Position numbers and translations under genes: made by a program. Under the pieces are notes generated by a model. That model searched no databases. It worked only from the letters and a program-made list of their open reading frames with translations, and was not told where the DNA came from. From the NCBI GenBank assembly GCA_016182605.1, contig JACPGE010000118.1, positions 1 through 42,551 of the forward strand: 42,551 nucleotides of DNA, written 5' to 3'. Positions 2,601-6,348 of this stretch are shown piece by piece. Position 1 is the first letter of the stretch, and each line of letters opens with the position of its first letter. Origin of the DNA: Candidatus Hydrogenedentota bacterium. Lineage in GTDB: Bacteria > Hydrogenedentota > Hydrogenedentia > Hydrogenedentales > JAEUWI01.

Positions 2601-3176
2601 GGGCGTATCTCCTCATATTGTTATATCACAAGCGCTTCCTACTACGTTAAGCAAGCGGCAAGCAGAACTGTCATGCCCGTTGCCAAGGGGACTTGAAGTG
2701 GTGAAATACGCGGGTTAGACACCCATTCATTGCGCGGCTGCGTTGCACTATTGCGTTTTTCCACGTCATTGCCCACGAGTCTTTGATCGCCCGCCTGGAA
2801 AACCGTTGAATTTCTCAATTCGCGGTGTGGAATTTCTCAACGCCTGGCGGCGAATCGTGAAACGCCGCAAGAATGCCTATGTTTATTGGCTTTTCTGATG
2901 TGCTGGTGTTGAATTTCACATCACCTATTGGATGAGAGATCGATCAGACCGTAGAAAATTTCATCGCCGCCTTTCCAGCACGCCGCACTTGCGGAATCCC
3001 GCCGAAGCCGTAATCCATTGCAGTCAGGAGGGTTGTGCAACGTGGGCCCTGCTCGCTCACAAGCGGCACGCACCTTGCGTTGCGAACGTAGACATTTGCA
3101 TCAAGAGTGGCATGCGTTCCTACCGAAGGAGGGAACGGGCGCTTCGGAAAGTTCCACGTACTGCGGGAGAATAGCG
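2601..3176. other. Intergenic region between BNR gene and redox operon
   Basis: This divergent 576-bp spacer holds the upstream regions of both flanking genes. It contains three short direct copies of a GTTGAATTTCTCA-like element at about 2805, 2827 (GTGG variant) and 2908 (CACA variant), which could be regulator sites. A plus-strand frame at 2932-3174 has no recognisable features and no good ribosome site; I do not call it a gene. No RNA gene was seen. Confidence 0.5.
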
Positions 3177-4085
3177 ATGAGAATCTCGCGAAGAGGGTTT
3201 ATGGCGGGGGTGGGGGCGATTGGCGGGTCTTTGGCGGGCCGCCGGGCTTCGGCGTCGACGGCGCAGCCAGCGCAAAGTTCGGATTCGATGGGGATGCTCA
3301 CGGATCTGAGTCGGTGTGTGGGTTGCCGCCGCTGTGAGTGGGCCTGCAATGAAGCGCACGGGTTGCCGAACGTGCCGTTGAATGAAATCGACATCGAGGC
3401 GGTCTACGGCGCGCGCCGGCGGATGGATGCGAATTCCTTCACGGTGGTGAACCGGTTTGGCGAAGGGGATGCCGCCACGTACGTGAAGCGTCAATGCATG
3501 CACTGTGTGGATCCTGCGTGCGTGTCGGCATGCCCGGTGAAGGCCTTTGTGAAGCCGGCGGAGGGGGCGGTGACGTACAACGAAGACCTCTGCATGGGCT
3601 GCCGCTATTGCATGGTGGCGTGTCCCTTTGACGTGCCGGCCTATGAATATGACAATCCGCTCTCTCCGCGCGTGCGCAAGTGCACGATGTGCTTCGAGCG
3701 CTTCGAATCCGGTGGCGCGGCGCCGGCCTGTGCCTCGATCTGCCCGCAGGAGGCGATTACGTATGGGAAGCGGGAAGACCTGCTCGCGCTTGCGCGGCAG
3801 AAGTTCCAAAATGCTCCGGGCGAATATGTGGATCACATCTACGGCGAGCGCGAAGCCGGGGGCACCAACTGGCTCTATATCTCCAAGAAGCCTTTCGAGG
3901 AATTGGGCTTCAACTGTGGACTGGGCGACAAGCCCTATCCCGATCTTACGAAGGGCTATCTGGCCATGGTGCCGCTGGTGCACTCCATTTGGCCCATGCT
4001 GTTAATGGGACTGTATGCGTTCAGCTCCAGCCGGGACCAAGCGGCGGAACCTGGACAACACGGCGAAGAGGAGGTCGAACGGTGA
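3177..4085 (+). CDS. Tat-exported 4x[4Fe-4S] ferredoxin-like redox subunit (HybA/HmcB type)
   Basis: This is the electron-transfer subunit of a membrane redox complex, probably passing electrons between a quinone-reactive NrfD partner and the cytochrome encoded downstream. The ATG at 3177 follows GGGAG and gives MRISRRGFMAGVG, a twin-arginine export signal; longer upstream starts lack this logic. The 302-residue product has four cysteine clusters in the order typical of the family: CVGCRRCEWAC, CMHCVDPACVSAC, CMGCRYCMVAC, and a spaced CTMC...CASIC. A hydrophobic segment near the C-terminus (LVHSIWPMLLMGLYAF) probably anchors it, as in HybA. It overlaps the next gene by four bases (GTGA), so the two are translationally coupled. 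No hydrogenase or molybdopterin large subunit lies beside it, so its donor or acceptor is not visible. Confidence 0.9.
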   Translation: MRISRRGFMAGVGAIGGSLAGRRASASTAQPAQSSDSMGMLTDLSRCVGCRRCEWACNEAHGLPNVPLNEIDIEAVYGARRRMDANSFTVVNRFGEGDAATYVKRQCMHCVDPACVSACPVKAFVKPAEGAVTYNEDLCMGCRYCMVACPFDVPAYEYDNPLSPRVRKCTMCFERFESGGAAPACASICPQEAITYGKREDLLALARQKFQNAPGEYVDHIYGEREAGGTNWLYISKKPFEELGFNCGLGDKPYPDLTKGYLAMVPLVHSIWPMLLMGLYAFSSSRDQAAEPGQHGEEEVER

Positions 4086-5332
4086 GCACGGTAATTGACT
4101 ACAGATTGGCCCATGCGTGTTCCTACAGCGACAAAATCCTGATGGGCATGACGCTCCGGGGCTATCTCCGTTCCCTCGTAACGCCGGGCAACGCCGTGGT
4201 AGCGGCCATTCTCTGCGTGGGATTTCCGATCACGATTCTGCGTTTCACGCAGGGCCTTGAGCGGGTGAGCAACCTGAGCAACGACTATCCCTGGGGACTC
4301 TGGGTGGGTTTCGATGTGCTCTGTGGTGTGGCGCTGGCTGCGGGCGGTTTCTGCCTGGCGGCGACGGTGCACATCTTCCACATGCACCAGTATGAAGCCA
4401 TCGTGCGCCCGGCTATTCTGACGGGTTTTCTGGGCTACTTCTTCGTGGCAGTGGGGCTGCTCCTGGATCTGGGCCGGCCCTGGCGGCTGCCCTATCCGCT
4501 CTTCGTCTCGCACGGCACGACGTCGGTCATGTTTGAAGTGGCCTGGTGCGTGGCCATGTACCTCACGGTGCTCTTTCTCGAGTTCAGCCCGGCGCTCTTC
4601 GTGTGGCTGGGATGGGAGAAGTTGCGCCGCTGGGTGGCACGGCTGACCTTCATGCTCGCGATACTCGGCGTGGTCCTGTCTACCCTGCATCAATCGGCGC
4701 TGGGCGGCCTCTTCCTGGTTGCGGCGAACAAGCTGCACCCCCTTTGGTACTCCATCTATATACCGGCCTTCTTCCTGGTCTCCGCGATGGCTGCTGGGGT
4801 CTCGATGGTTATTTTCGAAGGGTGGCTCTCACACCGCATCTTCGCATCGCGCCTGGGCACCGGCCCCCACCACAACTTCGACCAGCTCACGCTGGGGCTC
4901 GCGAAAGCGAGCGCCATCATCCTCTTCACCTACTTCTGCCTGAAATGGATTGGGGTTGCCCATGACAACCGCTGGGCTTATCTGTGGTCCGGGTTTGGCG
5001 CGTTGTTCCTGGTGGAACTCCTGGGCTTCGTGTTGGCGCCTGCAATCCTGTACACGGTCGCGGTGAAGCGGCGGAGTGTGACGCTGGCGCGGATTGCGGC
5101 GGTCTGGGCAGTGCTGGGTGTGGTGTTGAACCGCCTCAACGTGTCGCTCTTCGCCTACAACTGGCAATTCCCCGAACGGTACGTGCCCCACTGGATGGAG
5201 ATTGCCATAAGCATCACCCTGGTGACCATCGGCCTGATGACCTTCCGCTTCATTGTGAATCGCATGCCGATTCTCAACGCAGAAGCAGAGGACAAGGCGC
5301 ACGCCATCCACCCATTCCGGCGCGCAGCATGA
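4082..5332 (+). CDS. NrfD/HybB-like membrane quinone-reactive subunit
   Basis: This is an integral membrane protein of 416 residues with about ten hydrophobic helices, in the NrfD/PsrC/HybB family. These proteins exchange electrons with menaquinone or ubiquinone through iron-sulfur partners. The GTG start at 4082 overlaps the stop of the iron-sulfur gene, which fixes the start. Landmarks include NDYPWGLWVGFDVLCGVALAA early on and FVAVGLLLDLGRPWRLPYP, the conserved 'DLGRPWR' region of the family. Together with the flanking genes it forms a three-gene unit like HmcBC/HybAB plus cytochrome, and like Cbc-type complexes in metal reducers. The direction of electron flow cannot be told from sequence. 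Confidence 0.88.
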   Translation: MSTVIDYRLAHACSYSDKILMGMTLRGYLRSLVTPGNAVVAAILCVGFPITILRFTQGLERVSNLSNDYPWGLWVGFDVLCGVALAAGGFCLAATVHIFHMHQYEAIVRPAILTGFLGYFFVAVGLLLDLGRPWRLPYPLFVSHGTTSVMFEVAWCVAMYLTVLFLEFSPALFVWLGWEKLRRWVARLTFMLAILGVVLSTLHQSALGGLFLVAANKLHPLWYSIYIPAFFLVSAMAAGVSMVIFEGWLSHRIFASRLGTGPHHNFDQLTLGLAKASAIILFTYFCLKWIGVAHDNRWAYLWSGFGALFLVELLGFVLAPAILYTVAVKRRSVTLARIAAVWAVLGVVLNRLNVSLFAYNWQFPERYVPHWMEIAISITLVTIGLMTFRFIVNRMPILNAEAEDKAHAIHPFRRAA

Positions 5333-5352: not shown

Positions 5353-6348
5353 ATGAACACGAACAGAACATACGCCAGCCGGGGTTGGGCAAGTGCCGCA
5401 GTCTTGCTGCTCGTCAGCGCGGCGCCGGCAGCCGCTTACGCGAATGCAGACCGGTCTGCCGCCGCACAGGCGCCGTGCACCAGTTGCCACGCGAGTGAAG
5501 TAGCCGCTGCTGAAACGGCCTACGCCGCACCGGCCCCCGAGAATGGCGAAGCAGCCGCGCAAACACAGAATGCCCCCGGCGTCATGCTGCTTGATGTATT
5601 GTCGAAGTTTTACGGTGGGGTCCTCTTCAACCACAAGATCCACGCGGAAATGGGCGCCATGAATGGCGGTTGCGCCACGTGCCACCACTACAGCCCCGAA
5701 AACACCACGCCGGCCTGCCGGGCGTGCCACGAGATCACGCCGAATGGAGAACGCCTCAATCAGCCAGGTCTGCGCGGCGCCTATCACCGCCAATGCATGG
5801 CCTGCCACCGCGACTGGAGCGGCGAGACGGATTGCGAACGTTGTCACCTGCCCGCAGGGGCCGCGTTTCCGCAGAACATTCCGCTGGAAAGCACGGACAT
5901 CGTGGGGATGAACCATCCGCCCCTGATAGCCCCTGAAACCGTTCTCTACAATGTTCCGGATGCCAGCGACACGCAGGTGACTTTTCACCACGCGGATCAC
6001 GCGGAAGTGTTCGGGTTGCTCGCGATCACCGGGCACGATCTCTTTATTCCGATCCTGACCTACGTCTTTGGTGAAGCCCACCTGAACGGCCCCGCGGCAA
6101 TTGTCTCCACGCACCGGCTGACGCCGGAATTCTATGGATTGCCCGCCGACGCAGAGTTGCTGGAGGAACGCGCCTGCACCGAGGCCGTTCATGAACTCGG
6201 CCACACGGCGGGCCTGTTGCATTGCAGCGATTATTCCTGCGCCATGCATGCCTCTCACGCGCCCGAGGAGATCGACCTGAAAGAGGCGGACTTCTGCACC
6301 GCATGCAAACAGTACCTCTTCACGGCGAACGGGCAGACGTTGCGCTGA
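5353..6348 (+). CDS. Multiheme cytochrome c fused to C-terminal half of an archaemetzincin protease
   Basis: ATG 5353 follows GGAAG at a good distance and starts a signal peptide ending near AYANA; a further ATG at 5329, overlapping the previous stop, is possible but less likely. The 331-residue product has five CxxCH heme sites (Cys42, 107, 122, 148, 161) in a class III/c7-like arrangement, including LFNHKIH and CATCHH. At about residue 222 the cytochrome pattern ends and an archaemetzincin pattern begins: TGHDLFIPILTYVFGEA, then HELGHTAGLLHC at 280-291. The metal ligands are His280, His284 and His290 with Glu281, and the second zinc site is Cys291, Cys296, Cys315 and Cys318. This matches the archaemetzincin signature HEXXHXXGX3CX4CXM...CXXC. 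Normal archaemetzincins are about 170-190 residues and intracellular. Here only the last ~100 residues are present, behind an export signal. It may be a true exported hemoprotein-protease or the scar of a deletion. Confidence 0.8.
   Translation: MNTNRTYASRGWASAAVLLLVSAAPAAAYANADRSAAAQAPCTSCHASEVAAAETAYAAPAPENGEAAAQTQNAPGVMLLDVLSKFYGGVLFNHKIHAEMGAMNGGCATCHHYSPENTTPACRACHEITPNGERLNQPGLRGAYHRQCMACHRDWSGETDCERCHLPAGAAFPQNIPLESTDIVGMNHPPLIAPETVLYNVPDASDTQVTFHHADHAEVFGLLAITGHDLFIPILTYVFGEAHLNGPAAIVSTHRLTPEFYGLPADAELLEERACTEAVHELGHTAGLLHCSDYSCAMHASHAPEEIDLKEADFCTACKQYLFTANGQTLR

What the first reader, a model, noticed from the sequence alone, without database searches (positions are those of the whole stretch)
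5353..6348. Exported multiheme cytochrome c fused in frame to the catalytic half of an archaemetzincin
Five CxxCH sites of a class III-like cytochrome are followed, without a stop or frameshift, by the archaemetzincin signature with every zinc ligand (HELGHTAGLLHC and the CX4C and CXXC pairs). The join falls where the cytochrome motif FHHADHAEVFG should lead into another heme site, and where the archaemetzincin motif normally opens with a 'VLGVTDVDLF'-like segment. The metzincin N-terminal half is missing. Either this is a new periplasmic heme-protease architecture, or a deletion fused a redox-operon cytochrome to a neighbouring archaemetzincin gene.
Basis: partly seen in the sequence, partly recalled or inferred. 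Interest (0 to 1): 0.8.

Follow-up and report, generated by a model that had tools for sequence, protein, structure and literature searches.

The report
Deletion-made cytochrome–archaemetzincin fusion gene
A single bacterial genome carries a gene that is half heme protein and half protease, most likely because a 4.5-kilobase deletion in a respiratory gene cluster joined two genes that relatives keep separate, so it is probably an accident and not a new heme-protease, although the intact cluster suggests what this poorly understood protease family may do in bacteria.

Summary
The open reading frame is real. 5353-6348 encodes 331 residues: a likely signal peptide, five CxxCH sites of an Hmc-like class III cytochrome, then the C-terminal half of an archaemetzincin (M54) with every zinc ligand. 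A genome of the same order (G013, L031) has the apparent ancestral operon: HmcB-like FeS, HmcC-like NrfD, 13-heme cytochrome, GcvH-like, heme-site histidine kinase, NtrC-type regulator, complete archaemetzincin. The window keeps FeS, NrfD and the start of the cytochrome, then continues in frame inside the archaemetzincin. About 4.5 kb is missing: hemes 6-13, GcvH-like, kinase, regulator and 76 archaemetzincin residues. No orthologue of these was found elsewhere in the genome. The join is single-copy DNA without repeats. The fusion occurs in no other of 68 genomes of the phylum. The retained archaemetzincin lacks strands beta1-beta2 and the backing helix, and would be exported although its relatives show no signal peptide. 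The operon's sigma54 promoter and upstream sites remain although its regulator is gone. Best reading: an in-frame deletion chimera, with a possibly working 5-heme cytochrome and a probably non-proteolytic tail. In another phylum 18 of 20 fetched loci place an archaemetzincin beside this kinase-regulator pair, a testable lead on the family's role.

The parts
2805..2841 (+). two upstream palindromic sites GTTGAATTTCTCAAT (2805-2819) and GTGGAATTTCTCAAC (2827-2841), candidate enhancer sites of the sigma54 operon
   Evidence: Only two hits with at most 1 mismatch in the window; only such closely spaced pair in the whole genome; similar sites upstream of the operon in G013 and G033. The total match count in the window is not clearly above chance (22 against 14.7 expected), so the case rests on clustering and position.
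2908..2922 (+). third, weaker upstream site GTTGAATTTCACATC
   Evidence: Two mismatches to GTTGA-N5-TCAAC.
3064..3079 (+). sigma54-type -24/-12 promoter CGGCACGCACCTTGCG, 113 bp before the FeS start
   Evidence: Score 13/14.5; G013 has CGGCACGAACCTTGCT 108 bp before its FeS start.
3177..4085 (+). HmcB-like 4Fe-4S protein gene
   Evidence: NF045715 375 bits, below cut-off 420; Fer4_11 over cut-off; 66% identical to G013.
4130..5332 (+). HmcC/NrfD-like membrane protein gene (start uncertain, a little upstream of 4130)
   Evidence: NF045714 524 bits, below cut-off 550; PF03916 67.9 bits; 76% identical to G013.
5353..6348 (+). fused cytochrome-archaemetzincin gene, 331 aa (alternative in-frame ATG at 5329 overlapping the NrfD stop)
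5353..5448 (+). putative Sec signal peptide
   Evidence: Sequence inspection of MNTNRTYASRGWASAAVLLLVSAAPAAAYANA; no predictor run.
5476..5847 (+). five heme c sites CxxCH at 5476, 5671, 5716, 5794, 5833; a whole class III module (hemes 2-5) plus one extra heme
5977..6012 (+). VTFHHADHAEVF(G): in relatives this leads into cytochrome hemes 6 and 7, which are lost here
   Evidence: Alignments.
6012..6018 (+). join between cytochrome and archaemetzincin sequence
   Evidence: G013 cytochrome homology ends and G013 archaemetzincin homology begins here; the join is single copy in the genome and no k-mer over 10 bp at the join recurs in the window.
6016..6348 (+). C-terminal half of archaemetzincin, matching G013 residues 77-180
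   Evidence: 66% identity to G013; PF07998 positions 95-191 of 194.
6190..6225 (+). HELGHTAGLLHC catalytic zinc motif
   Evidence: Sequence; alignment.
6223..6306 (+). Cys4 zinc site: C6223, C6238, C6295, C6304, with CAM Met-turn
   Evidence: Sequence; alignment.

Best explanation
The gene is a chimera made by one in-frame deletion of about 4.5 kb inside a sigma54-controlled, Hmc-like redox operon (FeS - NrfD - 13-heme cytochrome - GcvH-like - heme-site sensor kinase - NtrC-type regulator - archaemetzincin). Shown here: the two halves, the intact operon in a relative with the same gene order and strand, no orthologue of the missing genes found elsewhere in the genome, the single-copy join, and the retained promoter-like and upstream sites. 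Inferred: a short-homology or illegitimate deletion removed everything from just before heme 6 of the cytochrome to residue 76 of the archaemetzincin. The product is probably an exported five-heme cytochrome that may still take electrons from or give them to the FeS/NrfD pair. Its archaemetzincin tail keeps both zinc sites but lacks the backing helix and two strands of the N-terminal subdomain, so it is probably not a working protease. The operon lost its own kinase and regulator, so it is silent or driven by another sigma54 activator.
For: G013 operon, same order and strand, with RR and AMZ overlapping by 4 bp. Window FeS, NrfD, cytochrome N-half and AMZ C-half are 66, 76, 42 and 66% identical to G013. 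No orthologue of the GcvH-like protein, cytochrome C-half or AMZ N-half found in G000; best full-length regulator match there is 46% against 63% for the operon regulator of G033. Join not in a repeat. All 16 cytochrome relatives read in full have 12-15 hemes. Fusion in no other of 68 genomes of the phylum. Cytochrome half diverges no faster than unfused ones. Sigma54 site conserved with G013. The model of the fused protein keeps the active-site helix but turns AMZ strands into low-confidence helix and matches AMZ structures at Z up to 11 over 89 residues, against Z 18 over 149-152 for the intact G013 protein.
Against: No second genome of the genus is held, so the pre-deletion state is taken from another family of the order. 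All ligands of both halves are intact and the frame is open, which could also mean that selection keeps the fusion. Read coverage was not available. The structure model has low confidence over the cytochrome and the join (mean pLDDT 51), with a shallow alignment and no hemes or zinc.
Confidence: 0.82

Rival explanations
1. A functional exported heme-zinc protein: the fusion was fixed because linking the cytochrome to the archaemetzincin zinc sites is useful, for example redox-gated proteolysis or zinc binding in the periplasm.
For: Open frame, all five heme sites and all zinc ligands kept; cytochrome half not accelerated; the two partners belong to one operon type; archaemetzincins with signal-like N-termini exist in the phylum.
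Against: Single occurrence among 68 genomes; N-terminal subdomain largely gone; operon-type archaemetzincins show no obvious signal peptide and sit with cytoplasmic regulators.
Confidence: 0.1
2. Assembly artefact: the join was made by the assembler, or represents a minor deletion variant in a mixed population.
For: The genome is fragmented (130 contigs), the fusion is seen once, and reads could not be checked.
Against: The join lies in single-copy DNA with no shared repeat; both halves are native in codon bias and come from one operon in the right order and strand; no other contig was found to carry the missing segment.
Confidence: 0.08

Closest known systems
Archaemetzincin (MEROPS M54; AfAmzA 3ZVS, MkAmzA 2X7M, MlAmzA 3LMC)
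   Same: Extended zinc motif, Met-turn and Cys4 zinc site; PDB matches E 7e-19 to 5e-17 over the C-terminal half.
   Different: Lacks beta1, backing helix and beta2 of the N-terminal subdomain; carries an exported cytochrome in their place.
Hmc-type complex (HmcA/HmcB/HmcC of sulfate reducers)
   Same: FeS and NrfD subunits are nearest to HmcB and HmcC; the cytochrome module is nearest to HmcA, nine-heme cytochrome and TmcA.
   Different: All below NCBIfam equivalog cut-offs; the cytochrome has 5 hemes here and 12-15 in relatives, not 16; the relatives' operons carry GcvH-like, sensor kinase, sigma54 regulator and archaemetzincin genes.
CarG of Myxococcus xanthus (non-proteolytic archaemetzincin-like regulator component; PMC3427221)
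   Same: A bacterial archaemetzincin with a regulatory role, a parallel for the kinase-regulator-archaemetzincin linkage seen here.
   Different: CarG lost the catalytic Glu; the window and operon proteins keep HExxH; match to the non-proteolytic model NF033824 is far below cut-off (65 against 250).

Membership tests
Archaemetzincin M54 | HExxHxxGxxHC with CX4C, CXM and CXXC | tested here: met
   Sequence 6190-6306; alignment A2.
Archaemetzincin M54 | Pfam PF07998 over gathering score | tested here: met
   68.6 bits against 24.4.
Archaemetzincin M54 | Full-length family model NF033823 over cut-off | tested here: not met
   122.9 bits against 145, positions 67-170 only; G013 AMZ scores 151.4 over 2-170.
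Archaemetzincin M54 | Complete N-terminal subdomain (five-stranded sheet and backing helix, PMC3427221) | tested here: not met
   Homology starts at residue 65 of 160 in AfAmzA, so the stretch that forms beta1, backing helix and beta2 is absent; the fused model lacks the sheet that the intact relative's model shows.
Archaemetzincin M54 | Proteolytic activity | not testable with these tools
   Needs an assay; even archaeal members were inactive on the substrates tried (PMC3427221).
Class III / Hmc-like cytochrome c | PF02085 over gathering score with CxxCH sites | tested here: met
   36.1 bits against 22.9, profile 19-101 of 101; five CxxCH.
Class III / Hmc-like cytochrome c | 12-15 heme architecture of the operon's cytochrome family | tested here: not met
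   5 hemes here; 12-15 in all 16 relatives read in full.
HmcA equivalog NF045713 | Score over cut-off 400 | tested here: not met
   53.4 bits.
Gene fusion fixed by selection | Recurrence in several species | tested here: not met
   Only G000 among 68 genomes of the phylum; none in the genome-contig scan, which reaches close relatives only.

The most novel reading that the evidence does not exclude
A fixed, functional exported protein in which a five-heme cytochrome module is joined to a zinc-binding archaemetzincin half, giving a redox-linked zinc protein or protease in the periplasm.
Probability: 0.08. Interest if true: 0.75.

Novelty: new variant of a known kind. Interest (0 to 1): 0.4.

Why it matters
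The fusion itself looks like a deletion accident, a clean example of how an operon collapse can make a two-domain protein that mimics a purposeful architecture. The intact operon matters more. In G013 and in 18 of 20 loci fetched from a second phylum, an archaemetzincin lies beside one type of sigma54 regulator and sensor kinase, and in four of them between the two. Archaemetzincins are a family of which very little is known biologically (PMC3427221), so this linkage to a heme-site two-component system and an Hmc-like redox complex is a concrete, testable lead on their role.

Tried and rejected
Searched G000 for the missing genes: only kinase and regulator paralogues and one weak GcvH match (E 1.1e-5, 24% identity) (in one search only 150 of 203 candidates were scored, which is why the non-paralogous parts were searched again). 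Repeat-mediated misjoin: no repeat at the join. Microhomology at the join: the longest exact match between the two G013 ends within 40 bp is 7 bp and out of register, so no clear recombination site. Accelerated evolution of the cytochrome half: not seen. G017's 792-aa open frame is only an upstream open extension before the cytochrome start, not a second fusion. The secreted-looking archaemetzincins of G005, G006, G021 and G026 (322-348 aa) have no CxxCH sites and their own N-terminal region, so they are not the same fusion. Literature: no paper in the held library combines archaemetzincin with multiheme cytochrome or sigma-54. Most of the cytochrome part of the fused model has pLDDT under 50, so nothing is concluded about its fold.

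Full report
Observation. ORF 5353-6348 on the + strand is intact and encodes 331 residues. By eye it starts with a Sec-like signal peptide. It then has five CxxCH sites with a class III cytochrome match (PF02085, 36.1 bits, residues 88-165) and, from residue 218, the C-terminal half of an archaemetzincin (PF07998, 68.6 bits, profile 91-191 of 194). The zinc motif HELGHTAGLLHC, the two cysteine pairs and the Met-turn are all present. Codon bias of both halves matches the neighbouring genes.

Surroundings. Upstream, on the same strand, are an HmcB-like FeS gene (3177-4085) and an HmcC/NrfD-like gene (4130-5332). Downstream are a methylguanine methyltransferase-like gene and, further on, rpoB (recognised from the translation). 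A sigma54-type promoter lies at 3064-3079 and matches, in sequence and position, one in front of the same operon in G013. Two 15-bp palindromic sites at 2805 and 2827 form the only such closely spaced pair in the genome, and similar sites precede the operon in G013 and G033. These promoter and enhancer assignments are consensus matches supported by position, not by experiment.

Ancestral operon. In G013, a genome of another family of the same order, one strand carries FeS, NrfD, a 13-heme cytochrome, a membrane-anchored GcvH-like protein, a histidine kinase with CxxCH and CxxxxCH in its sensor part, an NtrC-type sigma54 regulator and a complete 180-aa archaemetzincin. Kinase and regulator, and regulator and archaemetzincin, overlap by 4 bp. 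The window is collinear with this operon up to the cytochrome motif VTFHHADHAEVFG and resumes at archaemetzincin residue 77. Measured in G013 the gap is about 4.5 kb. It contains cytochrome hemes 6-13, the GcvH-like gene, the kinase, the regulator and the first 76 residues of the archaemetzincin. G033 has the same operon up to the regulator, with no archaemetzincin match in that genome.

Tests of the deletion reading. No orthologue of the missing parts was found elsewhere in the genome. The search with cytochrome C-half, GcvH-like protein and archaemetzincin N-part gives one weak GcvH match (E 1.1e-5, 24%). The best full-length regulator match is 46% identical, against 63% for the operon regulator of G033. 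The DNA around the join is single copy, no k-mer over 10 bp at the join recurs in the window, and the two G013 ends share at most 7 bp. A repeat-driven assembly join is therefore unlikely, though read coverage could not be checked. Among the 68 genomes held for the phylum no other fusion occurs: the cytochrome relatives read in full have 12-15 hemes, and the seven other archaemetzincins are separate genes, one of them (G024) split by a frameshift. The genome-contig scan found no fusion either, but it reaches close relatives only.

What the product can do. The cut falls between cytochrome modules, so the retained part is one whole class III module (hemes 2-5) with one extra heme. Its sequence diverges no faster than the same region in unfused relatives (34-38% identity to them, against 32-46% for nearly all pairs among them). 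It may still work as a small electron carrier; this is inference. The archaemetzincin part begins at AfAmzA residue 65 of 160. It thus lacks strand beta1, the backing helix and beta2 of the N-terminal subdomain described for AfAmzA (PMC3427221). AlphaFold2 gives the intact G013 protein a metzincin fold that matches archaemetzincin structures at Z 16.5-18.1. In the fused protein the active-site helix and zinc region are confident, but strands next to the join become low-confidence helix; the best archaemetzincin match has Z 11.1 over 89 residues. These models are shallow and lack hemes and zinc, so this is supporting evidence only. A working protease is unlikely but not excluded.

Regulation. 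The operon keeps its sigma54 promoter and upstream sites but has lost its own kinase and regulator. It is either silent or driven by one of the many other sigma54 activators of this genome. Conserved control sites without their regulator, and two halves without visible decay, suggest that the deletion is not old. This is inference; no close relative is held to date it.

A wider point found on the way. In the phylum of the KSB1 genome behind L057 and G068, 23 of 82 genomes carry an archaemetzincin matching that of G013. In 18 of the 20 loci fetched from that set the archaemetzincin lies next to this type of regulator (45-56% identical to that of G013), and a matching kinase is found in 17 of them; L102 is the exception. 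In four loci (L114-L117) the archaemetzincin lies between kinase and regulator. GcvH-like genes are nearby in most, and FeS or NrfD genes in about half. The proteins keep HExxH and show no obvious signal peptide (by eye). This points to a cytoplasmic partner of a heme-site two-component system, a role reminiscent of CarG of Myxococcus, an archaemetzincin-like component of a transcriptional regulator (PMC3427221). No paper in the held library links the family to multiheme cytochromes or sigma54.

Verdict. The fusion itself is of modest interest; the intact operon is the better lead.

Noticed in passing
L031:2089-9855 and L100-L117 (phylum of G068): Conserved linkage of an archaemetzincin with a heme-site histidine kinase and NtrC-type sigma54 regulator, often near GcvH-like and Hmc-like FeS/NrfD genes; in L114-L117 the archaemetzincin lies between kinase and regulator.
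   Followed up: partly
L031:6309-7976; HK genes of L057 and L100-L117: The kinase carries one CxxCH and one CxxxxCH motif in nearly all loci where its N-terminal part is held; the G013 kinase weakly matches the Mcp40H sensor domain (E 7e-4, below cut-off), suggesting a heme c redox sensor.
   Followed up: partly
L035:4941-5882, L039, L040, L041, L062: A second archaemetzincin group in the phylum, 322-348 aa, with signal-like N-termini and a different N-terminal region.
   Followed up: partly
L031:5615-6298: Membrane-anchored GcvH-like protein in a redox operon, with a lysine near the place of the lipoyl lysine; two copies in several loci of the phylum of G068.
   Followed up: no
L032:7067-7565 (G024): Archaemetzincin split over two frames, a frameshift or sequencing error, in a protein about 55% identical to the window's archaemetzincin half.
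   Followed up: no
L058, L059, L060: Planctomycetota MAGs carry the same FeS-NrfD-cytochrome genes with kinase and regulator divergently oriented, sigma54-like sites before the FeS gene, and no archaemetzincin in the stretch held.
   Followed up: partly
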